A stretch of DNA of 64,000 bases from Shewanella seohaensis (lineage in GTDB: Bacteria > Pseudomonadota > Gammaproteobacteria > Enterobacterales > Shewanellaceae): the NCBI RefSeq assembly GCF_025449215.1, contig NZ_CP104900.1, positions 1,116,001-1,180,000 of the forward strand, read 5' to 3'. Positions 243 to 56,700 of the stretch are shown here, in pieces. Under the pieces are notes generated by a model. The model saw only the letters and a program-made list of their open reading frames with translations, made no database searches and was not told the DNA's origin. A program made the translations under genes and the position numbers. The first letter of the stretch is position 1. Each line of letters opens with the position of its first letter.

Positions 243-1151
243 TCCCGTCACTTGGCATTGGATCATCGCCGTGTATCTGTTTATGGCGGGTTTATCCGCC
301 GGAAGTTTGCTGATTGGCATTGGCCTGCGTTGGTTTAATAAGGAGCAAGCGCAGGGGGAGACGAGTATTCTCAAGGCCGCGGCGATTATTGGTCCAGTGG
401 CCATTTGTCTAGGCTTGGCATGTTTAGTGTTTGATTTAACGAAGCCTTTCCACTTCTGGCTGATTTTAATCAACTATAACTTCCAGTCCGTAATGGCGAT
501 TGGGGTGTTAGCACTACTGGCTTACTCCCCTTGGCATTTGCCTACGCGATTCTTGTGTTGCGTGATGAACTGCCAAAGTGGGGCTTAGGTTTCCTCGTGC
601 CTATCGCTAAGCTGCTGATGCCCTTTAGAAAGTTGATTGAAGTACTGCTGTTTATCCTCGCCATTGGCGTGGGGGCTTACACTGGCTTCTTAATTTCGGC
701 TATGAATGCCTATCCGATGTTGAACACTGCGGTATTGCCAGCGCTGTTTTTAGTCTCTGGTTTATCGGCGGGCGCGGCGGCTAATGCGGTGCTGGCGCTG
801 GTGATGTTCAAGACCGATAGCCACGACAAGACCTTAGCCAAAATGCATGGCTTAGAGCTGCCAGTGATGGCAATCGAAATCATGTTCCTGTTTATGTTGT
901 TCTGCGCCTTGTACTTTAAGGGCGGAGCGGCGGCTGCGGCGCTGGCATCACTCACCTCTGGCGTGTGGGCGAGCGTATTTTGGATTGGCGTGGTCGGGAT
1001 TGGTTTTGGTATTCCGCTGTTGTTTATGCTGCTTCCCACCGCGACTCGCCACACTAAGGGCGCGATGATCATGGTGGCCTGCGCCAGCTTAACCGGCGTG
1101 TTAGCACTGAGACACTTTATTGTGTATGCGGGACAAAGCTATCTAAGTTAG
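208..1151 (+). pseudogene. psrC: NrfD-family quinol-oxidising membrane subunit PsrC (frameshifted as read)
   Basis: A multi-spanning NrfD/PsrC-type membrane anchor that would pass quinol electrons to PsrB. The start is ATG 208, nine bases after a strong GAGGGGG ribosome site; the alternative ATG at 229 has none. Reading frame 1 runs to residue LALLAYSP and then goes out of frame. The protein resumes at base 531 with LAFAYAILVLRDELPKWG and runs to the stop at 1151. The break is at the C run 527-530. Five C instead of four would give one continuous protein of about 314 residues, the usual PsrC size, with about eight hydrophobic segments. It is therefore either a sequencing error or a recent one-base loss. 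Confidence 0.75.
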
Positions 1152-1202
1152 AGTGCTGGTTAACGGCAATATCGATGGGATACATCACTTATCCCTGCAA
1201 GC

Positions 1203-1230
1203 AAAAAGCACCGATTAACGGTGCTTTTTT
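1203..1230. terminator. Bidirectional terminator between psrC and the TauE gene
   Basis: The stem AAAAAGCACCG / CGGTGCTTTTTT has a short AT loop and T runs on both strands. It lies between the convergent ends of psrC and the TauE-family gene. Confidence 0.85.
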
Positions 1231-1251
1231 ATGGCTGCGATTAGCAGGATT

Positions 1252-1287
1252 TTATTGCGGTAATTATTGCGGTAATTATTGCGGCAA
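1252..1287. repeat. Three tandem copies of a 12-bp unit over a stop codon
   Basis: TTATTGCGGTAA occurs twice, followed by TTATTGCGGCAA. The third copy contains the stop codon and last three codons of the TauE-family gene on the minus strand. The two outer copies lie just past the stop, so slippage here would not alter the protein. Confidence 0.85.
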
Positions 1288-2019
1288 TAGCTCAATCACA
1301 GATTTCACCGTAAGCACTAAGGCACTGATAGCGCAGAGGGCTAAGGTTGCCATCTTGGTCTTATGTTTATCCACATTCCCCACCAGTTTGCCCGCCACTA
1401 AATAGCCTAAAAACACTGAGGGCAGCAGCATGAGTGATAACCACAAATGCTTGATTTCGAGTAGGCCCGTCACCCCAAGAATGACCAGGGCTATGGTCGA
1501 GCTGAAGATAAAGAAGGCCGACAGTGCGGCGCGAAATTTGGAGGCATCCTTACCCGCCAACAAAATCGCCATCGGTGGGCCACCAATGGCGGCAATATTA
1601 CCAAAGATCCCCGAGACTACGCCCGCGCCAAACAGGGTTGCCTTATTCACGGGAAGAGTCAATTTATACAGGCTCAGCACCACGGCGACTGCCACAATGC
1701 CAGCAATCGCCAGACCAAGAATCGGCTGCGGCGCAAACAGCAGCAGGCTGGCACCGATAAAACCTCCGGGCACTCGACCGATAAGCGCGTATTGCAAGCC
1801 ATTGAATTCTAAATGGCCGCGTTCACGCAGTAGGGTGAGTAGGGCGATGGAAAAACCCATCACAATCACAGGTGCGGGCACTAATTCGGGGTCGACAATA
1901 TACAGCAACGGGCTCGCCACCACGGCAAGACCAAAGCCAATCAGACTCTGGGTGAGGGCACCTAAAAACACAATCACAGACGCAATGGCGAGCGTTTGTG
2001 GATCTATCAAGGAGAACAT
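1276..2019 (-). CDS. TauE/SafE (DUF81) family sulfite/sulfonate exporter-like permease
   Basis: A 247-residue membrane protein with about eight hydrophobic segments and glycine-rich helices, including GALTQSLIGFGLAVVASPL near the N terminus and a second half containing GGPPMAILLAGKD. These are the hallmarks of the TauE/SafE family, in which many members are thought to export sulfite, sulfoacetate or other sulfur anions, though the substrate of this one cannot be read from sequence. It lies downstream of metJ on the same strand but beyond a strong hairpin, so it is probably separately transcribed. The sulfur-reductase and methionine genes around it make a sulfur-linked role plausible but unproven. 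Confidence 0.8.
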   Translation of the reverse strand: MFSLIDPQTLAIASVIVFLGALTQSLIGFGLAVVASPLLYIVDPELVPAPVIVMGFSIALLTLLRERGHLEFNGLQYALIGRVPGGFIGASLLLFAPQPILGLAIAGIVAVAVVLSLYKLTLPVNKATLFGAGVVSGIFGNIAAIGGPPMAILLAGKDASKFRAALSAFFIFSSTIALVILGVTGLLEIKHLWLSLMLLPSVFLGYLVAGKLVGNVDKHKTKMATLALCAISALVLTVKSVIELLPQ

Positions 2020-2029
2020 AGGATTCCAT

Positions 2030-2090
2030 CAAAACAAAATAGGGATCGTTACTCTAACCCATCAGGCAAGATGAGCATTAACGATCCCTA
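2030..2090 (-). terminator. metJ terminator
   Basis: A perfect 12-bp inverted repeat, TAGGGATCGTTA (2040-2051) and TAACGATCCCTA (2079-2090), is followed on the minus strand by ATTTTGTTTT. It ends the metJ transcript ahead of the TauE-family gene. Confidence 0.7.
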
Positions 2091-2120
2091 ATGATAAGTA
2101 GGATATTGGACGCTTAAGCG

Positions 2121-2435
2121 TTACTCCATATCTTCCCACTCGATCCCCATTTCGTCCATCAACCGTTTCGCTTCGGCGGGAATGCTGTCTGGGCTATCTT
2201 TCGACAGATCGGCATCATCAGGCAGAGGCTGGCCGGTGTAGGCATGCAAAAATGCTTCACACAAGAGTTCGCTATTGGTGGCGTGGCGCAGGTTGTTCAC
2301 CTGACGACGGGTACGTTCATCCGTGAGGACTTTTAGCACTTTGAGCGGAATAGAGACAGTGATCTTCTTTACCTGCTCATTCTTCTTACCATGTTCAGCA
2401 TAGGGGCTGATGTATTCGCCATTCCACTCAGTCAT
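2121..2435 (-). CDS. metJ: Methionine repressor MetJ
   Basis: A 104-residue ribbon-helix-helix repressor, the standard MetJ length. The beta ribbon [20 protein letters not shown] and the following helices [20 protein letters not shown] are clearly MetJ. In gammaproteobacteria MetJ dimers bind tandem 8-bp AGACGTCT boxes with S-adenosylmethionine as corepressor. Such boxes lie in the 204-base gap to the divergent metB and upstream of metF, so this protein very likely controls metB-metL, metF and perhaps itself. The start is ATG with a run-in of ACAGGTGAGTCA. Confidence 0.97.
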
Positions 2436-2545
2436 TGACTCACCTGTTATAACGCTAAATTCGGTGCAGATTTTAAACCCTTACAGATAACAGTCAAATT
2501 ATTGCTACTATTTCTTGGTAATTGCAAATAGATTTCTTTATGTTT

Positions 2546-2616
2546 GGACGTCTAAACGTCTTAACGCCTATTGACGATGCCACTGGGCTTAGGTACATTT
2601 AGACGTCCAGACATCT
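2546..2616. promoter_or_regulatory. MetJ operator (met boxes) between metJ and metB
   Basis: Two clusters of tandem 8-bp met boxes are visible. The first is GGACGTCT, AAACGTCT and TAACGCCT at 2546-2569. The second is AGACGTCC and AGACATCT at 2601-2616, close to the metB start. The consensus known from E. coli is AGACGTCT. Two clusters in a divergent gap would allow separate control of metJ and metB. Confidence 0.9.
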
Positions 2617-2639
2617 CTTTGCGAACTTAGGAGTTCCCG

Positions 2640-3821: not shown

Positions 3822-3832
3822 AGGAATTCGAG

Positions 3833-6226: not shown

Positions 6227-6241
6227 TCATAAACCCAGACA

Positions 6242-7490: not shown

Positions 7491-9394
7491 CTAAATCTTA
7501 AATTGGGAGAGCAGAGTCGTTAAGCGCATTGAAAGCTGCGCGAGTTCATCCCCGCCCGCGCGGTTTGCACGGCACTTTCGGTCGCATTGGTCGCAATATC
7601 ATTAATATTATTGACGTTTTTATTAATTTCCGCCGAAACGGCGCACTGCTCATTGGCGGCGCTGGCGATTTGAATGTTCATTTGGCTGATGGTCGATACG
7701 GCTTGGGTAATGGCCTCGAGGGCAGAACCTGCCTCATGCACCAGTGATACACAACTCTGTGTGGTGGCCGTGCTGGTATTCATGCTGCTAACTGTGGCCT
7801 TGGCACTCTGTTGCAACGCCTCAATCATCTGCTGAATTTCTGTGGTTGAAGCCTGAGTTCGGCTGGCGAGGGTGCGTACCTCATCTGCCACTACGGCAAA
7901 GCCACGGCCTTGCTCTCCGGCGCGGGCGGCCTCAATCGCGGCATTGAGGGCGAGTAAATTGGTCTGATCGGCAATATTGCGGATCACCACTAATACCGAA
8001 TCAATTTGCGTGGTATTGCGCTCGAGTTCGTTAATGGCATTGGCGGCTTGGGCAATCTCATCAGCGAGCAAGCTAATGGTCGATATGACTTTTTCGACTA
8101 ATTGTTTACCCTGCTCGGTAGACTCGCTGGCATGGGTTGCAGCATCGGCGGCGTCGGTGGCATTGTGGGCGACCTCTTGCACTGTTGCCGCCATTTCGTT
8201 CATCGCGGTGGCAACCTGTTCGGTTTCGAGGTGTTGCCGATTCGCCATTTGCTGGGTTTCACGGGTGATGGCGGACATTTCCTCGGCCGATGTCGCGAGC
8301 AAACTGGTCGAGTCTGATACTTGGACCACTGTGGCGTGGATTTTCTCAGCGAAGCGGTTAAAGGCCTGAGCAAGTTGGGCCATTTCATCCTTGCTCTTCA
8401 CTTCGATACGACGGGTTAGATCGCCTTCACCTTCGGCAATATCGTTGAGTGCGTCAGTGGTTTCGGCAATTGGGCGGGTAATACTCTTAGCAATAAACCA
8501 CGCGATTGCTGTACCGATTAATAAGGCAATGATTCCTATCATGATGAGTTTTAAACGAATATCGGACATAGCTTGCTCTGAATGACTTCTGTCCAGCGCA
8601 ATATCTAACACCCCGAAGGTTTTGCCCGAATAGTCCTGTATTCCATGGCGGTAGAGTGCAAAGCTCTTGCCATTTAAATCTATGGTGCGGATAACTTCGT
8701 CGCCTTGCATAACGCTCTTAAGTTCGCTGGCGGCGCTGGTGTCTGTGGTAAACGTGCCACCGAAGGGGACAAAGCCGCCATCTTTTGGAAGCAGGAGACT
8801 GATCTCGGCCTGATAAGCATTTTTAAAATGATCGAAGAAGGTTTGGCCAAAGGACATGCCAAACTCCACTGAGCCCATGTGCTGCCCTTCGTAATTCATC
8901 GGGACTAGCCCACGGATCCCTAAGCCTTCCACGCCATATTCTAAGCCGCTAAGCGGTTGTTTTTGCGTGTTAGTTTCGACAATGGTTTTACGGATCGCGG
9001 TGAGGTCGTCGCCATATTTCTCTGGGCGGTGCAGGCGTAAAAACGAAGTGGCTGGCGGGGTGTGGAACTGGAACTGTTGCACGGCAAAATCTTGTTTAAG
9101 GCGAGTAAATAGCGGCAGTGTGCGTTGCAGTAATTCATCACGGTCGCGTGCGGCAAAGCTGCTTTGGATCTCTGGGGTTAAGGAGATTAATGTCGCCATT
9201 GCCTGTGCTCTTTGACCCGATGAGGCGATATTGGCTACTGCGGTTTCGTACAGTTTGTGCAGTTCTCGCTGCTCGGACTCGCGAATTTGGCGACTGAATT
9301 CCGATAGCACCAGTGGCATGATAAAGCTCATCACCGCAAATAGCAGTAGGCTGATCCCTAACACTATCCTAGTGCTAATGTTTAAATTCTTCAC
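7491..9394 (-). CDS. Methyl-accepting chemotaxis protein (C-terminal tail frameshifted as read)
   Basis: A transmembrane chemoreceptor. TM1 is near residues 9-30, then a Cache-like periplasmic sensor, TM2 near 283-303 ([18 protein letters not shown]), a HAMP domain, and a signalling domain with the conserved tip [44 protein letters not shown] stretch split by the hairpin. It would signal to CheA/CheW; the ligand is unknown. As read, the frame stops at 7520 after [13 protein letters not shown]. With one more C in the plus-strand run 7550-7553 it continues as [20 protein letters not shown] and ends FKI at 7491. That restored tail is typical for the family, giving about 634 residues. Confidence 0.88.
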
Positions 9395-9609: not shown

Positions 9610-10086
9610 ATGATGCAAAAAGAATTAGAGCGACTAAAGGAGTTATCCCTGGCGGAACATTTAGGCCGCTTGCACCGACTATGGCGCACCGTGGCGGATG
9701 TGGAATTAGCGCCACTCGGGTTAACTCATCCTCGTTGGACGGCATTGTGGAAGTTATTGCGTCTGGGCGACAACGTGAGCCAGAAGGTGTTGGCGGATGC
9801 GCTGGAAATTGAATTGGCTTCTTTGATGCGCACGTTAGGGCAGCTTGAGGAACAAGGTTTAGTCGAGCGTCACTGCTGCACTAAAGATAAGCGCGCTCGA
9901 ATCGTATCGCTAACGCCCGCGGGAAAGGATGTATTAAAGCAAGTCGAAGCGCGGATTATTCAAGTGCGCGCAGAGTTGTTGGCTGGGATCAGCGCCAGCG
10001 AGCTTGGTGAGTTTGAACGCATCATTAGCCTAATCAGTGATAACGCCTTAGCCAAGTTGGCTAAGAGCACAGAAATTCTTGAGTGA
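9610..10086 (+). CDS. slyA: SlyA/MarR-family transcriptional regulator
   Basis: A 158-residue winged-helix regulator. It resembles E. coli/Salmonella SlyA throughout, notably ASLMRTLGQLEEQGLVERH in the recognition helix and wing region and RAELLAGISASEL in the dimerisation helix. SlyA-type proteins repress or counter-silence target genes and release DNA on binding aromatic ligands. The start at ATG 9610 (or 9613) is preferred over the TTG at 9580, which lies inside the operator. It sits head-to-tail with an HlyD/DUF2955 export pair, matching the slyA-ydhIJK neighbourhood of enterobacteria, so those genes are the probable targets. Confidence 0.85.
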   Translation: MMQKELERLKELSLAEHLGRLHRLWRTVADVELAPLGLTHPRWTALWKLLRLGDNVSQKVLADALEIELASLMRTLGQLEEQGLVERHCCTKDKRARIVSLTPAGKDVLKQVEARIIQVRAELLAGISASELGEFERIISLISDNALAKLAKSTEILE

Positions 10087-10094
10087 GAAATAAG

Positions 10095-11154
10095 ATGACA
10101 CCGGATCAACAATTTGCCCGCCTTGTAAAAATCGCCATGCTCGGTTTTGTGGCTGTGTTTGGCTATTTTATGTTTGCCGACGCTATGATGCCCTTGACCC
10201 CACAGGCCATGGCAACCCGTGTGGTGACTAAGGTGACTCCGCAGATCAGCGGCAAGATTCAAACCATTAATGTGAAGAATAACCAAGTGGTTGCCAAGGG
10301 CGATTTACTGTTTCAAGTCGACCCTGCGCCCTTTGCGTTAGCCGTGTCTCAGGCAAAATTGGCCCTAGAGCAAGTGCGCCAGGACAATGCCGAGTTAGAT
10401 GCTTCGTTGTTAGCCGCCAAGGCGGAAGTGAATGCCAGTACTACGACGGCTCAATTAAAGCGTCGCGAAGCCAAACGTTTAGATGCACTGTATGCCACCC
10501 ATGGTGTGTCGCAGCAGCAACGGGATCAGGCCGATAGCGATGCGGACGCCGCCGAGGCGAATCTGTTAGCCGCTAATGCTCGCCTCGATAAACTCAAAGT
10601 GAGCCGTGGCCTCTATGGCGAAGAAAACCTAAGAGTTCGCCAAGCGATGAATGCCTTAGAGCAAGCTGAGCTGAACCTGTCTTACACCCAAATTCGTGCC
10701 GACCAAGATGGGGTGGTGACCAACCTGCAACTCGAAGTGGGCAGTTTTGCCGCAGTCGGCCAGCCGCTACTCGCCTTAGTCTCTGATAAATTAGATATTA
10801 TTGCCGATTTTCAGTGAAAAGACCTTACGTGGCGTTAACGCATCTTACCCTGCATTAATCGCCTTCGATGGTGAGCCAGGCCGTTTATACCGCGCCCAAG
10901 TGAGCAGTGTTGATGCTGGTGTGAGTGCGGGGCAGTTTGATGCCAATGGCCGCTTAGCGGCGCCGCAGGAGTCGGACCGTTGGGTGCGCGATGCGCAGCG
11001 CTTAAGACTACATTTAGTGTTAGACGACGATGCGATGAATAATCTGCCAGCAGGTGCGCGTGCCACTGTGCAATTACTGCCTGACAATACGCTGTTTAGC
11101 CTGCTAGCCAAGGTGCAGATTAAGGTCATTAGCCTGCTCCATTACATCTATTAA
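10095..11154 (+). pseudogene. HlyD/EmrA-type membrane fusion protein (frameshifted as read)
   Basis: A periplasmic adaptor with an N-terminal membrane anchor (residues ~12-32, MLGFVAVFGYFMFADAM), biotinyl-lipoyl half motifs around SGKIQTINVKNNQVVAKGDLLF, a coiled-coil hairpin and a beta barrel. It is similar in layout to E. coli YdhJ. The frame breaks in IIADF at the T run 10808-10811. With three T instead of four the protein continues as DFSEKTLRGVNASYPALI to the stop at 11154, about 352 residues. This is the only one of the window's frameshifts that needs a base removed. The start is taken as ATG 10095; a GTG at 10083 overlaps the slyA stop. It forms an operon with the next gene. Confidence 0.75.
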
Positions 11155-13022: not shown

Positions 13023-14077
13023 ATGAAATATTCTGCCATCTTACTATTGGCCGCAATGGGCGTGCTAACCGCTCAAGTTCAGGCTGCGAATGAGTTACCC
13101 GACAAACAAGCGCCATTGCCCTCAGTCCCTAAAAATCCTGAGCAAAGTTACTTAACCCCAAGACCCTTAAGTGCGATTCCCGAAGGGCCTTCGGCGATAA
13201 AGTACGCTTGGGTTATCAGCTATTTGTGAATACCCAGCAGCTGAGAGATAAGTATGTGGGTAACGAGCTTAACTGTACCAACTGCCATATGGATGCGGGC
13301 CGTAAGGCGAATGCGTCACCGCTTTGGGGCGCCTATTTTGCGTATCCCGCGTATCGTAAAAAAGACGATAAAGTAAATACCTTTCAAGAGCGGGTACAAG
13401 GCTGTTTTAACTATTCGATGAACGGTAAAGCCCCCGCTGCGGGCAGCCCCGAGCTGGTCGCGCTATCTGCCTACGCCTACTGGTTAGGGATGAGTGGATT
13501 AATGGATGCGGCTAACCTTGATGGCCCTGTGCCAGAACTCAGCGATGCCGAATTGGTAAAAGGCGCCAAACGTGAGGATTTCCCACTGCCTGACACGCTA
13601 GCCAAAGCCATGACAGTGGAGCAACGCGCAAATCTGCCTGGCCGTGGTTATCCTGAGATCCCCAAACCTGAACTCGCGTTCTCACCCGAGCGCGGCAAAG
13701 CCGTGTATACCGCTCACTGCCAAGCATGCCATGGCGCCGATGGTCAAGGCCAAGCGATTGCGGGTGTTTACTCTCTGCCGCCATTATGGGGTCCTAAGAG
13801 CTACAACTGGGGCGCAGGCATGCACAGGGTCAATACGGCCGCATTCTTCATTTATGAAAACATGCCCTTCGCTAAGAGTATTCAGCTGACTAACCAACAG
13901 GCTTGGGACGTTGCGGCTTACATTAACTCCCATGAACGGCCACAGGACCCCCGCAATAAGGGCGATGTGAAACAAGCGCAGGAGAAATACCATAACGACA
14001 ATGACTACTACGGTGTCGAAGTCGATGGCAAAGTGCTTGGCACCGCCTCTTATCCGGTGTTTCCGAAAAAGTCTTAG
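13023..14077 (+). pseudogene. tsdA: TsdA-like diheme cytochrome, thiosulfate dehydrogenase/tetrathionate reductase (frameshifted as read)
   Basis: A signal peptide (KYSAILLLAAMGVLTAQVQA) is followed by a domain with the heme site CTNCH in LNCTNCHMDAGRKANASP and by VQGCFNYSMNG. The cysteine of the latter motif matches the region that supplies the unusual His/Cys heme ligation of TsdA. A second heme site is CQACHGADGQG. The family interconverts thiosulfate and tetrathionate in the periplasm. The frame breaks at the T pair 13190-13191. A third T gives ...IPEGPFGDKVRLGYQLFVN and a continuous protein of about 351 residues. The ribosome site is AAGGAGCCGGCC. It follows the c4-type cytochrome as an operon. 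Confidence 0.78.
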
Positions 14078-21082: not shown

Positions 21083-21151
21083 ATTCTTCCCCTTATTCTG
21101 TGGATGGGGTAACTGTCACCGATCACGCTTTGTTGATAAAGAGGCTAAAGC

Positions 21152-21169
21152 ACAAATGATTTTTGCTAT
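21152..21169. promoter_or_regulatory. Shared 18-bp motif upstream of dkgB
   Basis: ACAAATGATTTTTGCTAT occurs here, 70 bases before the dkgB start, and again in the opposite orientation at 22129-22146 between the LysR and MFS genes. An exact 18-base match in two promoters flanking one regulator gene suggests a binding site for that regulator. Confidence 0.7.
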
Positions 21170-21214
21170 TACCGCAACAATCTATGGTACTTAACGCCCT
21201 AATCACTTCTAAAT

Positions 21215-27265: not shown

Positions 27266-27601
27266 CTAAGACGCGGATCTCGGGGAGAGTGTCGCCTCTT
27301 GATGACGGCTTAAATTAAAGTGCTCCAAGCCAGAGACTAAATGGGTGCGTGAGCAAATAGTGACTTGGGTGTTTTTGGTGAGTCCGCCTTGGGCAAGCGT
27401 AGTGATCCTACCATCGGGTAAGGCGAGCAGGCTGCTATTGGCTGAGCTATCCAACACTGTCACCTGTAAACGTGTGGGTTGACCGATAAGCGGATCGACA
27501 GCGGCAATAACCAATGCCACAAGCGTTAGCCCTAGACAGGTGATGAGTAATAGATTGGCGCGACTTAAGCTCGTCAAACTCGGGCGATGCGTTGGCAACA
27601 T
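27266..27601 (-). CDS. Small single-helix membrane protein of unknown function
   Basis: A protein of about 111 residues. One membrane helix lies at about 20-43 (LLLITCLGLTLVALVIAAVDPL) and a short periplasmic domain of about 65 residues follows. I recognise no family. The ATG at 27601 is supported by ATCGAGGAGAAC; the longer frame from 27688 is less likely. It lies between uvrA and the M28 peptidase on the same strand, with about 90-110 bases on each side, and could be cotranscribed with the peptidase. Confidence 0.6.
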   Translation of the reverse strand: MLPTHRPSLTSLSRANLLLITCLGLTLVALVIAAVDPLIGQPTRLQVTVLDSSANSSLLALPDGRITTLAQGGLTKNTQVTICSRTHLVSGLEHFNLSRHQEATLSPRSAS

Positions 27602-33217: not shown

Positions 33218-33281
33218 ATTGCAATTTTTCCATCGATAGCAAAACGTTGAGTTGCTTTCAAACCATTTACAGGATGTAGAG

Positions 33282-33820
33282 ATGGAACCATTTTTTGAGT
33301 TGGATGCTTTCTATCACAGGGATGTTTATTTTGTGTATTCGGAGCAGAATGAGCAGCCCTATATTGATAGCTTTACTAAGCCTTTGAATGGTGTAACGCC
33401 CCTTTACTATGAGGTGGGCGTGCTTGATGAGGCGATTACCCAGTACGACATTTTGCCCACCATAGGCCTTCCCCTTGTCAGCTCATTATTTGTCGAGTAA
33501 TTTCGTGCAGTTAGCGACAAAGAAGTCCAATTTATCCCTGCTGAAATTCGTGATAACAGCGGAGATATCAATCATCAATTTTATGCGATGAAGGTGCTTA
33601 AACGTTTCGCCTGTATCGATATGAATCGCTCGCAAGTCAGTTATCGCCGCTATGGTGAATGTCAGTCACTCCAAATCCAGACTTTAGTGATTGATGCCAG
33701 CAAGGTGGGGGAGCGTCGATATTTTCGCTACAGGAAAAACTGGCTTATATCATAGTGAATCAAACTATTCGCGATCTGTGTCAGCCGCTTCGGGGCGTAG
33801 AGTGTGTGCCGCTGGACTAG
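33282..33820 (+). pseudogene. Imm11/DUF1629-like immunity protein remnant (one stop, one frameshift)
   Basis: The reading begins at ATG 33282 (MEPFFELDAFYHRDVYFVYS) and meets an in-frame TAA at 33498-33500 within SSLFVE. The same frame continues beyond it with FRAVSDKEVQFIPAEI and FYAMKVLKRFACIDMNRS. It then shifts at the G run 33707-33711, after which another frame gives SIFSLQEKLAYIIV and ends RGVECVPLD. One extra G would join these parts. The pattern (FYAMNVL-like, CIDxxxS, late I-V-N helix) resembles the Imm11/DUF1629 immunity proteins that guard against secreted toxins. No toxin gene is adjacent. Two separate lesions make real decay more likely here than in the other frameshifted genes. 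Confidence 0.6.
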
Positions 33821-38763: not shown

Positions 38764-40187
38764 TTATTCCGACAGTTTTAGCTCTTGGCCTGGCTTAATA
38801 ATGCTCTTGGCATTGAGCTGGTTCCACTTCATTAAATCCGCGAGCTTCACTTTGTTTTTGCGCGCGATTTTATCTAACGAGTCACCGGACTTTACCTTGT
38901 ATGTGCTGGCTTTCGCGGCGGGCTTGTCAGCGGTTTTACTGCTGGTTTTAGCCTTAGCCGATTGAGATGTTGTTTGAGCTTTGCTCTGTTTTGGCGTCTC
39001 GCTCGAGGCGTTATCTTCGCTTGTCATCGGCGTTAACAGGGTTAACTCTTGGCCGATTTTAATTCTATCGGAGCTGAGGTTGTTTGCCTGCTTTAACTCT
39101 TTGACTGAGATATCAAATTTCGCAGCAATTGTGCCTAGGCTATCGCCGGATTTCACAATATAACTTTGGCTGTCGTAATGTTTTTGCGCGGACAGCTGGT
39201 GCTGATTCTCTTGATATTGGCCGATGTTTTCAATCGGCAGGGCGATTTGGTATTTGCCCTTACTTGGGATCACGCTTTGGCGATAACCAGGGTTATAGGT
39301 TTTAAACTCCGCCTTAGTGAGTCCCGCAGCATTGGCGATTTGACTGAGTTCAACGCCGTTAGGAGCAGGTAAACGCTCTAAAAATGGGCGGTTGGCAATC
39401 GGCATCACCTTGAGATTGTAATGGCTAGGTGCGCGGATAATTTGAATAAAGGCGAGCCATTTAGGCACGGTTTGCACTTGGCGAGCCGGAATATTCAGCG
39501 ACCAGAAATCCGTGGGTCTGCCTTTCGCTTTGTTTCTATCGATAGCGGCTTTGATCACTAGCTCGCCACTGTTATAACCCGCAACGGCGTTGATCCAGTC
39601 GTTACCTAAGGTGTCGTGCAAGTGCTGTAAATAGTCGAGCACGGCATCGGTCGAGGCCAGTGCATCTTTACGGCCATCGTAGGCCGAGTTGATGGTTAGG
39701 CCAAAATTACGTCCCGTCGCAGGGATCATTTGCCAGAGCCCGGCGGGGCCATTTGCCTGAGCGAGCGGGTTATAACCACTCTCAACAATCGGCAGGAGTG
39801 CCAGTTCGAGCGGCATATTGCGGGCTTCGAGTTGGCTGACAATATAGTATAAAAATGGCTCGGCGCGCTGGGTCACCTGAGTCATAAACTTTTGCTTATC
39901 ATCGAAAAAGTTACGCTGTTTGCGGACTTCGGCATCGTCATGTACATCAATGGTGCGGGCGTGTTGGATTTTTCCCACACATCGGCGTAACGCTCGTCGA
40001 TAACTTCCGTTTCAACATGCTGAGGTTGTGCTGTTTCTTCACTATTGCCCTGGGCGTCTGGCATGGTTGCAGCGTATTCCGTAGGCGACGTTTGCGCCGA
40101 CGTGGTTGCGCAGCCGCTTAGCTGGCCCATCAAGATGGCGACCACGAGCGCAGCTAAGGCATGGGGTTGGCGAAAGGTTTTCCGCAT
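38764..40187 (-). pseudogene. mltD: Membrane-bound lytic murein transglycosylase D, MltD (frameshifted as read)
   Basis: A lipoprotein signal (ALVVAILMGQLSGC) leads into a lytic transglycosylase domain with the catalytic glutamate in [13 protein letters not shown] and the motif [18 protein letters not shown]. Two C-terminal LysM domains follow ([16 protein letters not shown] and [16 protein letters not shown]), separated by a Ser/Lys-rich linker. It cleaves peptidoglycan glycan strands. The frame breaks in YADVWEK at the plus-strand T run 39969-39973. One more T gives [20 protein letters not shown] and a continuous protein of about 474 residues. ATG 40187 with ACAGGACAATC is the start. Confidence 0.85.
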
Positions 40188-40343
40188 GATTGTCCTGTAA
40201 TCTGTAATGACTTGGTATTCCATGATTTGGCACATGCTAATCTGTTTTCGCATTTGTGAATAGCTTTGCTTAAAATTTGACCGCGTTAGTTACGTTTAGC
40301 TTTAGCGCTAAATACGCTAAGATAGCGGCGGTTTTTTATTGCA

Positions 40344-43759: not shown

Positions 43760-44757
43760 ATGTCCGAATTACCCCATGATTACACGCATATTTATCTTGA
43801 GCAGCCTGGCGAGCCTGAGGTGATGCAGCTGACACGCTCGCCATTGCCCGTACCGAGTGCTGGCCAAGTCTTGATTCGTAACCGCGCAGCCGGGGTGAAT
43901 GGACCCGATATCAAACAAAGGATGGGAATGTATCCACCACCACCTGGGGCATCGCCGATTATTGGGCTGGAAGTCGCGGGGAGATCTGCGCCTTGGGCGA
44001 CGGCGTGACTCAATGGCAGTTAGGAGATAAGGTTTGTGCTTTAGTGCCCGGCGGTGGCTACGGCGAGTACACCTTAACCTATGCTGAGCATTGTTTACCT
44101 ATTCCACAGGGCTTTTCTGAGGTGCAAGCGGCGGCGCTGCCCGAAACCTTTTTCACTGTGTGGGGCAACCTCTTTATGCGCGCGGGACTCAAGGCGGGTG
44201 AAACCGTGTTGATCCACGGTGGCTCGGGTGGCATTGGCAGCACGGCGATTTCCCTCGCTAAGCATCTTGGTGCGACCGTGATTGCGACCACGGGGCAGGA
44301 TGCCAAGCGCGACTATTGCGCCGGATTAGGCGCCCATTTAGTGGTGAACTACAACACCCAGAACTTCGTGGAAGAAGTCATGGCCTTTACTCAAGGCAAG
44401 GGTGTCAATGTGGTGTTTGATATTGCTGGTGGCGACTTTATCAACTTGAATCTTCAAGCATTAGCGCTAGATGGCCGCATGGTGTCAGTGTCGACCCAAC
44501 GTAGCGGTAAGGCTGAGGTGAACATTCTGCAGTTGATGGCCAAACGTATTGTGTGGACGGGATCGACCTTAAGACCGCAGAGCGTTGCGGCAAAAGCCGA
44601 AATCGCCAAGCAATTACGTGAGCAGGTTTGGCCTTTGCTCGATAGTCAGCAAATCGTGCCGCATATCTGTGCCACCTTTCCACTGGCCGAGGCGGCCAAG
44701 GCCCATGCGCTGATGCAGTCGGGAGAACATAGGGGCAAAGTCGTATTAACCTTGTGA
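43760..44757 (+). pseudogene. Zinc-independent NAD(P)H quinone oxidoreductase, PIG3-like (frameshifted as read)
   Basis: A medium-chain dehydrogenase/reductase lacking zinc ligands. The N part has YIYLEQPGEPEVMQL and GQVLIRNRAAGVNGPDIKQRMGMYPPPPGASP, as in PIG3-type quinone reductases. The Rossmann motif is VLIHGGSGGIGSTAISLAKHLG. The frame breaks after GLEVAG at the G run 43978-43981. A fifth G gives VAGEICALGDGVTQWQLGDKVCAL and a continuous protein of about 332 residues. The start follows CTCCTAGGAGCACGTT. It lies alone, downstream of the SEL1 protein. Confidence 0.82.
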
Positions 44758-45078
44758 TCCTACCTAGCTACATCTGTGTAAACGCACTCGCCTCAATCCT
44801 TTGATGGAGGCGGGCTGCCGAATTAAAACTTGCTGTGATGTTTTTTTAGACTAAAGTCGTTAATGACAAAATTTTTAGAGACTTTGGCCGAAATTAATGC
44901 GTAATAAGTGAAAATTTCATGGTATGAGGCATTGATTATCGGAAATATTCTGTAAAAATACCCAGTTGAAAACGTCAGAGACTTTCCGGCGCGATTCGTG
45001 GATCAAAGCAAGCGACGCTTCGCTTATTCAGACTAAAAAACTCATAGTGTATGTGTTGATTTAAGGGTATTGGCATAT
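44758..45078. other. Intergenic region after the quinone oxidoreductase
   Basis: A 321-base gap. A hairpin CGCCTC/GGAGGCG at 44789-44812 without a T run may end the upstream transcript. The rest is AT-rich and likely carries the promoter of the following acidic-protein gene. No gene is seen. Confidence 0.45.
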
Positions 45079-45485
45079 ATGTATAACACAGCAAAGAAAC
45101 AGGTTTGGTATGGTGAGCTGAGAACATCGAAGGGCACCGCGATTGTCGTCCATGACAACCAGCTGCCAGAGGCTTCCCTGGACGAATCTACCTCTACAAT
45201 ACCGAACGTGATGCTATTGTTGAGTATGTAGAAGACATCGTAAAAGTGAACCTACATGACTTAGATGATGCAGCGGTAAAAGCGGCTGAAGCTAAGTTTA
45301 GCGGCGCATGGAAAGCAGCTCGAGCTCAATTTATGGGCAAGCATCAAGCTCGTATCGACCTGAACAATGTCAAAGATTCAGGCCCTGTTCGTAAAGCTAA
45401 GGCTGAAGTTGAGCCTGAAATTGAAACCGATGCCATTGGCGCCGATTTTGATGAAGATTGGGGCGGCGATGATTTCGACGATTAA
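45079..45485 (+). pseudogene. Conserved-looking small acidic protein (frameshifted as read)
   Basis: ATG 45079 begins MYNTAKKQVWYGELRTSKGT and continues to QLPEAS, where the frame is lost at the C run 45176-45178. With a fourth C it continues SPGRIYLYNTERDAIVEYVEDI and VKVNLHDLDDAAVKAAEAKF to the stop at 45485, about 135 residues. The tail is highly acidic (DFDEDWGGDDFDD). The charged-helical middle and acidic tail suggest a nucleic-acid or protein partner, but I do not recognise a family. The tail only superficially resembles that of SSB. It lies alone ahead of convergent galM. Confidence 0.55.
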
Positions 45486-46751: not shown

Positions 46752-47896
46752 CTAGCTGTCGATGCGCCCCGCGCCAGCACTTGCCGAGCAGAGATACACA
46801 GTGGCATCGATTCCGGTCTGCTCATAAAATGCATGCTCTACCGCCGAGACCACGGCATCGGTGAGTTCGTGATCCACTAAGGCGACAACACAACCGTCGG
46901 TCATGCGAATGCCACCACGCTCTCCAATCACTTGGCCGACTATGTCCACCAAAGTGTCAAATTCGGGCAGTGTCACCTCAAAATCATCCCGCAGAGATTG
47001 ATGGGACTGTGCCATTAACAAACTGAATTTAGATAGATTATTTTGCTCTAGCGCCCGAGCTGCACTCTGAGTGCGTTTGTTTTCGGTGACGACGTGTTTG
47101 GCGCGGCGATACAGGGTGTCATCCAATTGATCTTTAGCACTTTCGAGCTGGCGCAGGTCGAGGTGGCGCAGGGCATCGAGACCAAAAAGTCGGCAGCCTG
47201 TACGCATTCTTCACGGCGTTGTTGATTTATCGCCGCCAGACGTTGTTTCTCGATATGGGCATCGATAATGATAAGGCTGAGGTTTTCAGGGATCGCAATA
47301 GGCTCGCTATCCAGATCCAGACAATCGATGAGCAAGGCATGATCCGGTTCGCCCATGGCGCAGATCATATGGTCCATAATGCTGCAAGCCGATGAGACAT
47401 AACGATATTCACCGCGCTGTGCGAGTTGTGCTACTGCCATAGGAGATAAATGCAGTTGACTGCTGTCGCTGATGGCGGTGCCAAAGGCGACGACTAAGGC
47501 GCCGGAGGAAGACAGACCTGCGGCTAATGGCACATCGCCGACAACCGCTAAGTCTAACCCTTTGGCGATAAGCCCAGTGTTGGCCATGGCCACAGTTAGG
47601 CCTTTGAGATAATTGACCCAACCATCTTCGGGATTGATTTCGGTGTCTTTACCGAAACTCCATTCCTTGATTTGCCCCGGAAAGGCGTCGGCAACGGCGC
47701 GAAACTTATTGTCCTCTCGGCGCTTAACGGCAATCACAGTATGAAAATTAATGGCGGCGGGCAACACGAAGCCGTCGTTGTAATCCGTATATTCACCGAT
47801 CAAATTAACCCGACCTGGGGCTTGGTATAAATCATCGGCTTTAGTGCCAAAGGTTTGGACAAATAACTTAGTGGCGCGCTGCGCAGGGTTCGACAT
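46752..47896 (-). pseudogene. galK: Galactokinase GalK (frameshifted as read)
   Basis: A GHMP kinase phosphorylating galactose to galactose 1-phosphate. The galactokinase signature GRVNLIGEYTDYNDGFVLP is near residue 33, the ATP loop is GDVPLAAGLSSSGALVVAFG, and the C-terminal GHMP motif is IGERGGIRMTDGCVVALV. The frame breaks in CVQAADF at the plus-strand A run 47184-47188. One more A (T on the coding strand) gives ADFFGLDALRHLDLRQLE and a continuous protein of about 381 residues, the standard length. ATG 47896 is preferred to 47917. It lies upstream of galM on the same strand. Confidence 0.88.
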
Positions 47897-48111
47897 GCTG
47901 AGAAGACTTCCAAACAAGCTGAGCTAAATTGCGTTCTTGTCTTCGATTTATATCATGACTAACTCGGCCTTGTAACTGAGATTTTGTAGGGTATAGACGA
48001 TAGTCTCGTTAGGGAAAATCGATACAGAACAATCAACCGATTAGTTCTGTCTAGCGAATCATTGCAATTAGTTGATTTTAATTGTTTTTAACATTTTAAG
48101 GGGAGAGGTAA

Positions 48112-48181: not shown

Positions 48182-49830
48182 TTAGACCGAGCCAGAGGTT
48201 GCGTTAGCGTTGATTGGTGACTTGTCGGCATTGACCTCTGCGCGGGTTTCTGAATCGGGTAATAACTCATGGATCACATGGTCGACAAAACCCGCACCCG
48301 CCGCTTCGTACAAGTTATACACGCTGTGTACGCCAGAGGTTCTCAGCGAGGCGGCATCATCGCCGTATTGTACGATGGCGCTGAGTTTACCTTGATAGTT
48401 CAGCTTCTTAAGCTGCTCAACGGCGAACAGGTTCCCCGCATGGTGCGGCATGGCCAGTAGCACTAACTCAAGATTTGGCGCTCTGTCGAGTTTCTCCCAA
48501 AAGTCGGTATCCGCGGCATCGCCTTGCACTACGTTGCGGCCATTGGCACGGTGTAAATCCACCAGTTCTTGCTTGTGTTCAATTCCGAGGATTTCACCAT
48601 CGAAACGTGCGCGCAGCTCATCGTAGGCACCGCTACCAATGCGGCCCATACCTAAGATCAAGAAGCGGGGATTACCAATGGCAATCGGTCTGTCTTCTGG
48701 GTGCAACGGGGGCTTCTCGAGTCGAATCAAACGTTGTTGGAAGCGTTGATAAATATTGCCCACGGTAGCGTTGAGTGGCGCCGCAAATAAGAAGCTGAAA
48801 CTTAAGGCGACCGCGATTATCACCAGCCATTGTGGTGGTAGCCAACCTTTGCTGGTGGCAACGGCGGCCACGATAAGGCCGAACTCAGAGAAGTTACCTA
48901 AGTTGAATGAGGCCAGCATAGAGGTGCGTGAACGCAGCTTGAATCGTGTCAGTAAGTAGACGAATAACAGGATTTTTAACGGCACTAACAGCACTAATAA
49001 GGCCGCGAGTACCACATCGGATACCGTGGGTAAGCCGTTGAGGCCAATGGTTAAGAAGAAGGCGACAAGGAAGAGTTCTTTAAAGTAGAACAAGGATTTA
49101 GCCAGCTCAGAAGCCTTTTTATGCCCCGCGAGTAAAATCCCGATGATCAGTGCGCCGAGATCCGGTTTGAGGCCGACGGATTCAAACAACCAAGCGCCGA
49201 CAACCAGCGCCATCACTAATCCAAATAGCACTAAGAGTTCGCCGTGACCAACACGGTCGAAGGCTTTGTAAATCAGCGGTTTTGCTAGAGGCAACAGCAA
49301 TAATGCCAGCGCCCAGACAGACGGGATAGCGCCCTTAGAAATAGTTAAAAATACGACGGCAAAAATATCCTGCATAATCAGGATACCAATGGCGACACGG
49401 CCATAGAGGGACTGCACATCGCCTTTATCTTCCAATACCTTAATCGCGAATACCGTACTGGAGAAGCTAAGCGCAAAGGCGATTAATGACAGCTGTGCCA
49501 CGCTCAAACCGTCGAGTTGGCTTAAGCCAATCAGGCCGAGGATTTTGAGGATGGGAATAAACAGCACCATGGAGAGCACTAAATGTATGCTCGAGCCCGC
49601 CCAGACTTCGGCCTTAAAGAGGCTACGAATATCGAGTTTAAGACCAATGGCAAACAATAATAAGGTGACACCGAGATTAGCGAGTTCTTGCAGCAGCGGC
49701 AGGCTTTCTTTCTCAATACCAAAAACAAAGAGTACAAAGCCTGCCACTAAGTAGCCGATCAGGGAGGCAGCCCTATGCGGCTAACCAGCATGCCGCAGAT
49801 AAGTGTAATGATGAGAATAGCCGGTTCCAT
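48182..49830 (-). pseudogene. CPA2-family monovalent cation:proton antiporter with TrkA-N domain (frameshifted as read)
   Basis: A Kef/YbaL-type antiporter. The N-terminal membrane domain has about twelve helices, with motifs LGVTLLLFAIGLKLD and LSFSSTVFAIKVLEDKG. The C-terminal NAD-binding TrkA-N domain is FLILGMGRIGSGAYDELRARF. It should exchange potassium or sodium for protons under ligand control. It truly starts at 49830 (MEPAILIITLICGMLVSRIG), but the frame meets a stop after LPP. A fourth base in the plus-strand G run 49762-49764 gives LPPLIGYLVAGFVLFVFG and a continuous protein of about 549 residues. It lies downstream of dsbD but behind that gene's terminator. Confidence 0.83.
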
Positions 49831-49893
49831 AATGCTCCAATCTAAAAAGTCCACGTTAAACAGGGATTGTATAAGAAATCGATGACAGCGTGA

Positions 49894-52366: not shown

Positions 52367-52986
52367 ATGTTTTTAATCCTGTTTTTATTATTTGTGCTGA
52401 TCCCAGTTGTCGAACTGTCAGTGTTAATTCGCGTGGGCGAGGTGCTCGGCACTTGGACCACTATTGGTCTGGTGTTATTTACCGCCGTGTTGGGCGTATC
52501 CCTCGTGCGTAGTCAAGGACTGAGCACGCTGATGCAAGTGCAGCAAAAACTCACCCGAGGCGAGGCGCCAGGGCAGGAAATTGTCGAAGGCATGATGCTA
52601 GCCATGGCGGGTGTATTGCTGGTTATTCCAGGCTTTGTGACTGATTTTATTGGCCTATTATTACTCACACCCTTAACGCGCCGCCCGATTGCCGCTTTAG
52701 TGTTTAAGCGTATGCAGCTGCGCGTGGTGTCTGGTTTACAGGGCGGAATGCACGGCGGTTTTGGCGCGGGTCCATTTGGACCTCATTCAGGCTCACAGTC
52801 GAATCCATTTGGCCAATCCCCTTTGAGCAACATACTCACTCCGACGGCAATGTGTATGAAGGGGACTTTGAGCATAAGGCCGATCCGAGCGATAAACGCC
52901 CCGAGAGTCATCAATTGACCGACCAAGACCTTGATGCGAAAGCGAATGAGCCTAAAGACGCTCAGCCAAAGGATCCAAAACCTTAG
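52367..52986 (+). CDS. fxsA: FxsA-family cytoplasmic membrane protein (C-terminal tail frameshifted as read)
   Basis: FxsA-type membrane protein. The N-terminal core has four hydrophobic segments (LILFLLFVLIPVVELSVLI, TIGLVLFTAVLGVSLV, MMLAMAGVLLVIPGFV, DFIGLLLLTPLTRRPI). In E. coli FxsA interferes with phage T7 exclusion by F plasmids. As read the frame ends at 52918 with an implausible tail. A fifth C in the run 52818-52821 gives PFEQHTHSDGNVYEGDFEHK, an acidic His-rich tail ending at 52986, about 206 residues. The core is unaffected. A terminator follows at 53029. Confidence 0.85.
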
Positions 52987-53028: not shown

Positions 53029-53066
53029 CAAGCTCCCATAGGTAAACCTTTGGGAGCTTGTTTTTA
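53029..53066 (+). terminator. fxsA terminator
   Basis: CAAGCTCCCA (53029-53038) and TGGGAGCTTG (53051-53060) pair and are followed by TTTTTATTTG. Confidence 0.88.
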
Positions 53067-53173
53067 TTTGGGCTTTGTCGCAATAGTCTGCGGTGGATCA
53101 CTTGTCTCACCTTTGCTTCGATTTAGGGGCGTACTATAGTAAACCTCGAACATATTATTCATGGAGGTTGAAT

Positions 53174-53569
53174 ATGCACTTAACTAAGTTAAAGCTGATG
53201 TCGGGATTGTTGTCTGTCGTAACTTGCTCGCTGATCACCTATAGCGCCGTGGCAGGGCCTTTAGATCCAAATTGCGACCCTGAAAAAGTTGCCAAGAATG
53301 CCGCGGTCAAGGCTACTACTGGCGTGAGTGGTCGCTGTACTCCCGAGAAAGCCGCCGAGCGTACGGCGAAAGATGCCAAGGATGCCGTTGGGGATGCTAA
53401 GGATAAAGTGACGGATTCGGTCAGTGATAAGGTCGATGATATTAAACCCGACGATAAGCTATCCGACAAAGCCTCCGATGCGCTAAAGCAAGATAAGCAC
53501 GAACACGACAAGCACGACAAAAAAGAGGGAGTCGATGCTAAGAAAGTCGTGAAAAAGGTCATCAATTAA
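53174..53569 (+). CDS. Secreted Lys/Asp-rich LEA-like protein of unknown function
   Basis: A 131-residue protein with a signal peptide (LMSGLLSVVTCSLITYSAVA) and a mature part rich in Lys, Asp and Ala, arranged as amphipathic 11-residue-like units (DAKDAVGDAKDKVTDSVSDKVDD). This composition resembles LEA, YtxH or apolipoprotein-like coils rather than an enzyme. Two cysteines (NCDPEKVAK and GRCTPEKAA) could form a disulfide, and the tail holds a His/Asp/Lys cluster (DKHEHDKHDKK) suited to metal binding. I recognise no family. ATG 53174 is backed by ATGGAGGTTGAAT. A terminator follows at 53601. Confidence 0.65.
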   Translation: MHLTKLKLMSGLLSVVTCSLITYSAVAGPLDPNCDPEKVAKNAAVKATTGVSGRCTPEKAAERTAKDAKDAVGDAKDKVTDSVSDKVDDIKPDDKLSDKASDALKQDKHEHDKHDKKEGVDAKKVVKKVIN

Positions 53570-53600
53570 CGCCGGGCTCGATAGTCATTCACTCTTACCG

Positions 53601-53644
53601 CGCCTAGATTTTATGCTAACCCAGCTGAAATCTAGGCGTTTTTG
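53601..53644 (+). terminator. Terminator after the LEA-like gene
   Basis: CGCCTAGATTT (53601-53611) and AAATCTAGGCG (53628-53638) form an 11-bp perfect stem followed by TTTTTG. Confidence 0.88.
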
Positions 53645-53744
53645 TATTCGGCTTAAGTGGATAATCGATAAAAGGAAAGGGCCAATCGATGAGCAATACT
53701 ACATCGATCGGCCACGCCGGGAAGCGTTTAGGGAGAGTGGCGTG

Positions 53745-56700
53745 CTAGTTGGTGCTCGCCACTGCATTCGGTTTGATGTTAAAGGCCAAGCTGTACATCA
53801 CTGGTAGCACTATCAGGGTCAGTAATGAGGCAAAACCTAAACCAAAGATGATAGTGATCGCCATCGAGCCGAAAAAAGCGTCGGGGATCAGCGGGATCAT
53901 CCCGAGCATAGTGGTGATTGCCGCCATTAATACGGGGCGCACACGACTCACACTCGAATCGACGAGTGCGGCATAGGCGGGTTTACCTTCATCGAGCTCG
54001 AGGTTGATTTGGTCAACCAACACAATGCCGTTTTTAATCACCATGCCCGAGAGGCTCAGCAGGCCCAGCAGCGCCATAAAGCTAAAGGGGGCATCGAAAA
54101 TCAATAATCCCGCCGAGACACCAATCAAGGCCAGTGGCACGGTAAACCAAATCACTAAGGGCTGGCGCACAGAGTTAAACAGGAACACTGTGATTAAAAA
54201 CATCGCCAAGTAACCCATAGGAATTGAGCTAAATACCGCGGTTTGGGCTTCGCCTGCGGTCTCATACTCGCCGCCCCATTCGAGGTGGTAACCAGCGGGA
54301 AGACTGATGGCTTCAACCTTATCCTTCACTTTACGCAGCACAGAATCGGCTGTCTCATCGCTGCCAAGCTTTGGATCGGCCAAAACCGCTAACATCCGCA
54401 TCCGGTCGCGACGCTTCACCAACGGGTTTTCCCACTGGGTTTCGAACTGGCTCACCACTTGGGTGGCTGGCACGAAGGTGTTGTGCTCGGTACTCCAAAT
54501 TTGCAGTTTCCACAGGCTGTCGGCCTGTAAGCGCTCTTCGGCGGGTGCACGGGCAACGATAGGCAGCAAATGGCTGGTTTCACGGTACAGACCAATCTGT
54601 TTGCCGCTAAAGTTGATGAGCAGTGCGTTATCCAGATCTTGCTTACTGATCCCGGTTTCCCTCGCCTGAGCATTTTGCAGCTGCGGGCGGATCAGCGGCA
54701 CTTGATTGCGCCAGTCATGGCGAACACCGTCCATCGTTGGTTCTGTATGGAAAATCGCTTCGGCCTGCGCGCCTAATGCACGCAGCACTTCGGGGTCATC
54801 ACCGTAGAAACGTGCCTCAATCTTCGCGGCGGGAGACGGGCCGTTTTCCATATTCTTGAATCGATATTGCGCCTGCGGGAATCGTTGATTTAACTGTCCT
54901 TCTAACTCAGACATATAGACTTTGAGCGACGCTAAATCCTCCATCTCGATGATCAACTGGGCAAAGGCGGGGTAGCCTTTCTCGGGTTGATAGGGCAGGA
55001 CGAAACGCTGCGCACCTTGGCCAATCACTGTGGTTAAGTGTTTTAGGCCGCTGTGTTGTTCCTCCGCTTGCTTGAGTAGCATCTGCTCAATATCGGCGGT
55101 AAAGCGTTCTGTACCTTTGATATCCGTGCCTTCTGGCATCCAAATATCCACAAAGAAGATTGGCGTATTTGACGCAGGGAAGAACACATTTTTGATATGC
55201 CCAAAGCCAATTACCGCAGTAACGAGCATGGCACCGACCAAGAGAATACTGGCGAGCCTAAAACGCAGGGCAAAGGTTAAACTCGCGCGGTATAAGCTAA
55301 AGAACCAGCCCTTGTATGGGTCCTGTTCTTCATCGTCTGCTGGCGCATCTTTAAAGAGCAAGTGGCAGAAGAAAGGTGTCAGGGTGATCGCAGTAATCCA
55401 ACTGATAAATAAAGAGATCATTAACACTTGGAACAGGGAGCGACAAAATTCACCGGCGGCATTTTGTGATAAACCAATCGGCGCAAAGGCGATAATCGCG
55501 ATAACGGTGGCGCCAAGTAGCGGCCATTGGGTTTGCGACACAATTTGTTTTGCGGCTTCGAGGCGAGTCTTACCCCGGCGCAGGCCAATCAGAATGCCTT
55601 CCGTCACCACAATGGCGTTATCGACCAGCATACCAAGCGCGATGATCAGGGCGCCGAGGGAGATCAGTTGCAGCTCAATGCCCAGTACTTTCATCACGAT
55701 AAAAGTGCCGAGAATGGTCAGCAGCAGGATTAATCCCATCAGTAAGCCTGAGCGGAGGCCCATAAACAGCAATAGCACGGCAATAACGATGGCAATCGAT
55801 TCTAATAGGTTGATTAAAAATCCATTAACTGTGTCATCTACCGCCAGACTCTGGTTATAAACCGTGTCTAGGTTCATTCCAATCGGGCGCTGTGATTCTA
55901 GCTCGGCAAGGCGCTGGCTAACGCTTTTACCCACTTCAACCACGTTAACGCCGCTTGAGAAGGAAATCCCCAGTGATAAAGCCGTCTCGCCACGGTTGTG
56001 ATAGAGCACACTCGGGGTCTCGTCGTAATCTTTCTCAATATTGGCAATATCCCCTAAATAAATGAGTTCGGTGCTACCCGGTGGGCTGACAATCAGACGC
56101 GCCAGATCTTGCACACTGCTGAATTCACCCGTAGGGTGGATACGAATGCGATTATCGCCAACCACTAAACTGCCCGCATTGGAGACTACGTTTTGGTTGT
56201 TGATAAGACCGTAGATATAGCTTTGATCTAGCCCCAGTGCCGAGAGTTTTTGTTGTGATATTTCAATCACCACTTGCTCGGTCACACTGCCCGCGACTGA
56301 GACTTTTTTCACCCCAGGCACTAGCACTAATTCTCGGCGCAAATAGTCGGCGTAGTTGGTTAATTCGCGGTTGCTATAATCCGGGCCAGAAAGGTTAAAC
56401 AAAATCCCATAGACGTCGCCAAAGTCGTCATAGACTTTGGGCGAGGTGCTGCCGGGGGCAATTGTCCTGCGGTATCGTTAACCTTACGGCGCACTTCATC
56501 CCACACCTGTGGCAGGCTGGTTTTGTCGTAGGTTTCTTTAATCTCAATTTGGATCTGCGACAGACCAGCACTGTTTATTGAGGTCACGTGCTTAACCGCA
56601 TCGAGCTGCTGTAATGCATCTTCGAGGGGCAGGGTCACCTCCTCTTCGACTTGCTCGGGCGATGCGCCCGGGTAAGCGGTGATCACTAGGGCTTCTTTAA

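What the first reader, a model, noticed from the sequence alone, without database searches (positions are those of the whole stretch)
500..56500. Twelve single-base homopolymer frameshifts in one 64-kb window
psrC (527-530), MCP (7550-7553), HlyD (10808-10811), tsdA (13190-13191), Imm11-like (33707-33711), mltD (39969-39973), quinone oxidoreductase (43978-43981), acidic protein (45176-45178), galK (47184-47188), CPA2 antiporter (49762-49764), fxsA (52818-52821) and the RND permease (56454-56458) are each broken by a one-base change at a homopolymer of 2-6. Eleven are too short and one is too long. Adding or removing that base restores a full family-length protein in all but the Imm11-like gene, which also has an in-frame stop. 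About one per 5.3 kb is far above natural pseudogene density in a free-living Shewanella. Long-read or pyrosequencing homopolymer error is the simplest reading. Long conserved genes (uvrA, M16, metL, deaD, dsbD, groEL) happen to be intact.
Basis: partly seen in the sequence, partly recalled or inferred. Interest (0 to 1): 0.7.

Follow-up and report, generated by a model that had tools for sequence, protein, structure and literature searches.

The report
Sequencing errors mimic broken genes
The broken genes in this Shewanella window are almost all missing-base mistakes of genome sequencing and assembly, not real damaged genes, because the same kind of fault also breaks genes that no cell can live without.

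Summary
All 12 listed sites show a frame-changing one-base difference from a 92%-identical complete relative (G015): 11 shorter, 1 longer. Eleven are clean two-frame matches to an open relative's protein. The twelfth, Imm11-like, is only 63% identical with an extra in-frame stop, so probably a true pseudogene.

The error reading is strongly supported. In four compared regions (400,231 aligned bases) there are 55 such interruptions in 49 genes, among them rpoB, rpoC, fusA, secA (three breaks), rplA, mreB and priA, which cannot all be broken in a living cell. In coding runs of four or more bases, this genome is one base shorter 31 times and one base longer never. The rate climbs with run length: G/C runs of 5, 9 of 80; of 6, 5 of 5. 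Ten named relatives give 2 events in 164.6 kb, against 6 in 21.7 kb here. Pooled sequence beyond the breaks shows no decay. mutS and mutL are open.

Best explanation: an under-polished long-read assembly, nanopore-like. Ordinary, but gene-loss claims from it are unsafe.

The parts
202..1151 (+). psrC (NrfD family) read in two frames; frame change near 528-531
   Evidence: NrfD halves; two-frame match, 98% on both sides, to a 316-aa G015 protein
7494..9394 (-). methyl-accepting chemotaxis protein (dCache_3, HAMP, MCPsignal); frame change near the 3' end, 7550
10083..11154 (+). HlyD-family membrane-fusion protein; frame change near 10813, the only listed site where the window is one base longer
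13023..14077 (+). TsdA-like cytochrome c; frame change near 13187
33252..33817 (+). Imm11-like immunity gene; 63% identical to the G015 copy over residues 1-158, with an in-frame stop and a frame change; probably a true pseudogene
38764..40253 (-). MltD-like lytic transglycosylase with LysM; frame change near 39972
43760..44757 (+). quinone oxidoreductase (zinc-type ADH); frame change near 43980
45070..45482 (+). acidic protein, 137 aa in G015, no Pfam match; frame change near 45177
46752..47917 (-). galK, galactokinase; frame change near 47186
48182..49854 (-). CPA2-type antiporter (Na_H_Exchanger, TrkA_N); frame change near 49762
52367..52980 (+). fxsA; frame change near 52820
53745..56824 (-). 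RND (AcrB/D/F family) permease; frame change near 56457

Best explanation
The frame changes are errors of the assembly, not of the organism. The consensus drops one base at homopolymers, above all G/C runs of five or six and A/T runs of six or more, as expected of an under-polished, error-prone long-read assembly, most likely Oxford Nanopore of an older chemistry. The cell very probably carries normal genes at 11 of the 12 sites. The twelfth, the Imm11-like gene, is probably genuinely decayed. Shown here: the faults, their one-sidedness in coding runs, their run-length dependence, their presence in essential genes, and mostly intact relatives. Inferred: the sequencing platform and the lack of short-read polishing.
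For: Essential genes split between frames: rpoC, rpoB, fusA, mreB, priA and a SAICAR synthetase-family gene with 97-100% identity in every piece; secA in four pieces (97.5-98.7%, the 26-residue N-terminal piece 77%); rplA (95.7%, the last 24 residues 83%) (families). Coding runs of 4 or more: 31 one base shorter, 0 one base longer, 2 other. G/C runs of 4, 5, 6: 4 of 598, 9 of 80, 5 of 5. A/T runs of 5, 6, 7, 8 or more: 1 of 511, 8 of 101, 3 of 13, 1 of 1. 48 of 54 one-base losses in broken ORFs abut a run of three or more in the window's genome. Ten relatives give 2 events in 164.6 kb, against 6 in 21.7 kb here. Third-codon-position share of mismatches is 0.824 in intact genes, 0.816 before and 0.809 after breaks, pooled. 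Published nanopore errors are mainly deletions, and run length tends to be underestimated above about five (PMC8486125, passages). Uncorrected nanopore homopolymer indels shift frames and inflate pseudogene counts (PMC8011154, passages).
Against: No reads were available. Six of 54 losses are not at a run of three or more, and six strict events are gains, so run length alone does not explain all. By the strict run count, 29 coding losses and 5 gains fall where G015 has a single base. Over all isolated one-base differences, coding and non-coding, losses lead gains only 132 to 73, part of it ordinary divergence. Density is uneven: 4 events in 57.5 kb of the ftsZ/secA region, against 13 in 77.8 kb of the rpo region. 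The extra regions were picked for essential genes and mutS, not at random. The Imm11-like site does not fit.
Confidence: 0.97

Rival explanations
1. Real mutations from a mismatch-repair mutator: slippage at homopolymers has truly broken hundreds of genes.
For: Mutators do slip at homopolymers (recalled). Most losses here are at homopolymers.
Against: mutS (888 aa) and mutL (665 aa) are open and as long as in G015. rpoB, rpoC, fusA and secA are broken. There are 31 losses and no gains at coding runs of 4 or more. Other repair genes were not tested.
Confidence: 0.01
2. Ordinary pseudogene decay in a genome undergoing reduction.
For: Frame changes are real in the sequence. One gene (Imm11-like) looks truly decayed.
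Against: Pooled sequence after the breaks keeps the codon-position signature of intact genes. Essential genes are hit. The genome, 4.75 Mb, is no smaller than its relative, 4.71 Mb.
Confidence: 0.01
3. Phase variation by homopolymer tracts, or recoding (ribosomal frameshifting or transcriptional slippage) that rescues the shifted frames.
For: Slippage rescue is known in insect endosymbionts (recalled; papers on the theme, PMC3017870 and PMC5009743, were seen only in the search listing with the start of the abstract).
Against: Runs at the losses are short (in broken ORFs mostly 4-5 as written), spread over many gene classes, and most relatives carry open frames at the same places. secA would need three rescues.
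Confidence: 0.005
4. Sequencing error, but from another platform (PacBio continuous long reads, 454 or Ion Torrent).
For: All have homopolymer error (recalled). A single 4.75-Mb contig points to long reads (inference).
Against: Loss bias, and G/C runs failing at shorter length than A/T, fit published nanopore behaviour (mainly deletions, longer runs underestimated, GC-dependent). 454 and Ion Torrent would be expected to give both gains and losses (recalled). No direct test was possible.
Confidence: 0.2

Closest known systems
Nanopore systematic homopolymer indels in unpolished bacterial assemblies (PMC8011154; PMC8486125; passages read)
   Same: Frame shifts in coding genes, mainly one-base losses at homopolymers, an inflated count of broken genes, and relatives that expose the errors.
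   Different: The platform is not documented for this assembly. A few sites are one-base gains at a C-GTGAA context, not homopolymers.
Mutator-driven homopolymer slippage (recalled)
   Same: One-base changes at homopolymers.
   Different: mutS and mutL open; essential genes hit; no one-base gains at coding runs of 4 or more.

Membership tests
Systematic long-read consensus error | Excess of frame-changing indels in coding sequence over related assemblies | tested here: met
   6 in 21.7 kb against 2 in 164.6 kb of ten relatives
Systematic long-read consensus error | Rate rises with homopolymer length and favours loss | tested here: met
Systematic long-read consensus error | Essential genes are not spared | tested here: met
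   rpoB, rpoC, fusA, secA, rplA, mreB, priA interrupted; rates by essentiality class were not compared
Systematic long-read consensus error | Accurate reads disagree with the assembly | not testable with these tools
   no reads available
Mutator genome | Loss of mutS or mutL | tested here: not met
   888-aa and 665-aa open frames, equal to G015; other repair genes not tested
Pseudogene decay | Relaxed selection after the break | tested here: not met
   pooled third-position share 0.809 after breaks, 0.824 in intact genes; exception Imm11-like

The most novel reading that the evidence does not exclude
Some of the non-homopolymer errors may not be random. Four one-base gains in the compared regions share the context GATNNNC followed by GTGAA. 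Genome-wide the form with the extra base is commoner here than in G015 (24 against 11; backward-read control 3 against 5) and the form without it rarer (33 against 46; control 40 against 28). A modified-base motif of a DNA methyltransferase of this strain could be distorting the base calls, so that the assembly errors carry a readable trace of its methylome. The skew to one strand (17 forward, 7 reverse) and the many unaffected sites speak against a simple symmetric methylation motif.
Probability: 0.12. Interest if true: 0.35.

Novelty: not a real feature. Interest (0 to 1): 0.12.

Why it matters
In the compared regions 46 of 318 well-aligned ORFs of at least 100 aa, about one in seven, look broken in this assembly by the strict count, although the organism is very probably intact at nearly all of them. 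Any claim of gene loss, pseudogene content, phase variation or missing pathway from this genome would inherit these false breaks. Checking rpoB, rpoC and secA against a near relative is a quick way to tell such artefacts from real decay in other windows.

Tried and rejected
Considered and rejected: a mutator genome, decay, and phase variation or recoding. A paper search for Shewanella, mutator, mismatch repair, homopolymer and frameshift together gave 0 papers.

An apparent further broken gene, the M28 peptidase at 27286, was dropped because the site falls in a probably over-extended 5' stretch that has its own stop in the window. An in-frame stop in the match at 20243-21181 was set aside as probably an over-extended start in G015; this was not checked further.

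The 'G015 broken' class looked like a counter-result: 9 strict cases. Seven of those are again one-base losses in the window's genome that happen to lengthen or shift an ORF. One is a one-base gain and one a 14-base difference. I did not check each with a third genome, and the strict 55 were not each checked with a third genome either; they include the Imm11-like site and a two-base difference in a stretch where the window's genome and G015 diverge. The strict filter leaves out sites in the first 10% of an ORF, such as CPA2. Another 33 of the 318 ORFs carry a frame-changing difference that the strict count leaves out.

The insertion context was first thought to be a full bipartite methylation motif. 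The genome-wide counts show only a partial excess, skewed to one strand, and the backward-read control for the shorter form differs between the two genomes as well. A plasmid search for the Imm11 area found no match. Literature searches: one search gave 0 papers; two searches were used as listings only (one paper was then read in passages). The middle's printed output was cut; the site list rests.

Full report
What was asked. The finding lists 12 genes in a 64-kb Shewanella window as broken by one-base changes at homopolymers and reads them as sequencing error.

The setting. The window is positions 1116001-1180000 of a 4.75-Mb single-contig genome. Its nearest relative in the held set as searched, G015, is a complete 4.71-Mb genome that is 92% identical over 8.6 kb and collinear on the opposite strand.

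Observation. Aligning 224 kb around and including the window to G015, every one of the 12 sites appears as an isolated frame-changing one-base difference within a G015 ORF: 11 with the window shorter and one, HlyD, with the window longer. tblastn of the G015 proteins against the unaltered window gives two adjacent frames for 11 of the 12. Identity is 94-99% in each piece, except 88% in the mltD N-terminal piece and 87% in the short fxsA tail (seven of the genes also). Of 65 G015 ORFs given, 48 matched by the thresholds used and 13 showed a frame change or stop. These 13 are the 11 genes, the M28 peptidase case and a stop-only case at 20243-21181. The Imm11-like gene is not among the 13, since it falls under the 80% identity threshold of that call. 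On its own it shows 63% identity over residues 1-158, an in-frame stop and a frame change, so it differs from the rest and is probably a genuine pseudogene.

Not confined to the window. Three more regions were compared with G015, chosen for what they hold and not at random: around rpoBC and the ribosomal operons, around ftsZ/secA, and around mutS. Over the four regions, 400,231 bases aligned. Keeping isolated frame-changing differences between 10% and 98% of an ORF, there are 55 in 49 genes of the window's genome: 46 one-base losses, 6 one-base gains and 3 of two bases. Of 349 non-overlapping G015 ORFs of at least 100 aa, 318 are at least 98% covered by the alignment; 46 of these 318 are broken by the strict count, and 33 more carry some other frame-changing difference. 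Density is one per 7.0 kb (window plus flanks), 6.0 kb (rpo), 14.4 kb (ftsZ/secA) and 6.9 kb (mutS). Scaling to the whole genome would give roughly 650 (inference). The opposite class, in which the window's ORF is the longer, has 9 strict cases, but 7 of those are again one-base losses in the window's genome.

Essential genes. rpoC is open for 1411 aa in G015 but 1213 aa here. tblastn of G015 proteins shows rpoC, rpoB, fusA, rplA, mreB and a SAICAR synthetase-family gene each in two frames, priA in three pieces and secA in four (family names). The mreB pieces are 100% identical on both sides. That rpoB, rpoC, fusA and secA are indispensable is established knowledge, recalled. A cell with all of these broken could not have been grown, so the sequence as written cannot be the organism's.

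The error signature. In coding sequence, G/C runs of 4, 5 and 6 are one base shorter in 4 of 598, 9 of 80 and 5 of 5 cases. A/T runs of 5, 6, 7 and 8 or more are shorter in 1 of 511, 8 of 101, 3 of 13 and 1 of 1. At runs of 4 or more there are 31 one-base losses, no one-base gain and two other cases. At G015 single bases there are 29 losses and 5 gains among 143,637; part of these may be run losses in the window's genome at places where the relative has a substitution, but that was judged by eye only. Non-coding runs show the same rise with some gains, as expected where real indels are tolerated. Taken over all isolated one-base differences, coding and not, losses lead gains 132 to 73. Of 54 one-base losses in broken ORFs (loose count), 48 abut a run of three or more in the window's genome. 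Published nanopore data show deletions as the main error, good estimates for runs under about five and a tendency to underestimate above, with dependence on GC content (PMC8486125, passages read). Uncorrected nanopore homopolymer indels cause frame shifts and excess pseudogenes: 151-5298 with one polishing pipeline on R9.4 data against 12-136 in truth genomes (PMC8011154, passages read). The match is good, but the platform remains inferred.

Controls. Ten of the 80 named loci were aligned to G015 over the same stretch. Together they have 2 isolated frame-changing indels inside ORFs in 164.6 kb, both of two bases and one of them at the very end of an ORF; the window's genome has 6 in 21.7 kb. 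Per gene, named loci with one open frame over at least 85% number 36 for the quinone oxidoreductase (1 with frame change or stop), 49 for the acidic protein, 67 for galK, 65 for CPA2 (5 with frame change or stop), 73 for fxsA, 8 for the RND permease and 2 for mltD; further matches were cut by an edge or fell below 45% identity, and loci without a match are not counted. The database search with the galK piece lists six 381-aa proteins at 96-99% identity over 82% of the query, among the best 120 shown.

No decay, no mutator. Pooled mismatches to G015 fall at third codon positions in 0.824 (239 intact genes), 0.816 (before breaks) and 0.809 (after breaks, 55 genes by a looser position filter) of cases; ORFs with other frame-changing differences were dropped from the intact set. 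mutS and mutL are open and of equal length in both genomes.

What is not explained. The six strict one-base gains are not run losses. Four gains in the compared regions lie at GATNNNC-GTGAA. Genome-wide the longer form is commoner here (24 against 11) and the shorter rarer (33 against 46), with a forward-strand skew of the longer form (17 to 7). The backward-read controls are 3 against 5 and 40 against 28, so the second difference is weak evidence. A modification-dependent base-calling fault is possible but unproven. The uneven density was not explained.

Verdict. Eleven of the 12 listed breaks are very probably assembly errors; one is probably a real pseudogene. This is not a biological feature.

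Noticed in passing
G000 whole genome; in the window at 10806-10818: One-base gains at GATNNNC-GTGAA contexts: 24 longer forms here against 11 in G015, 33 shorter forms against 46, with a forward-strand skew. Possible modified-base effect on base calling.
   Followed up: partly
33252-33817: Imm11-like immunity gene at 63% identity to the copy at the same place in G015, with a stop and a frame change; likely true decay of an immunity gene, unlike the other 11.
   Followed up: partly
L044 (Shewanella sp. HN-41): Its quinone oxidoreductase also matches in two frames, with a two-base difference; perhaps an error of that draft assembly.
   Followed up: no
G000:C1:940001-1000000: Lower density of frame breaks (1 per 14.4 kb) than in the other compared regions; cause unknown.
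   Followed up: no
L045, L046, L069, L093, L095: The CPA2 antiporter match shows a stop or frame change in these 5 of 70 named loci; not examined.
   Followed up: no
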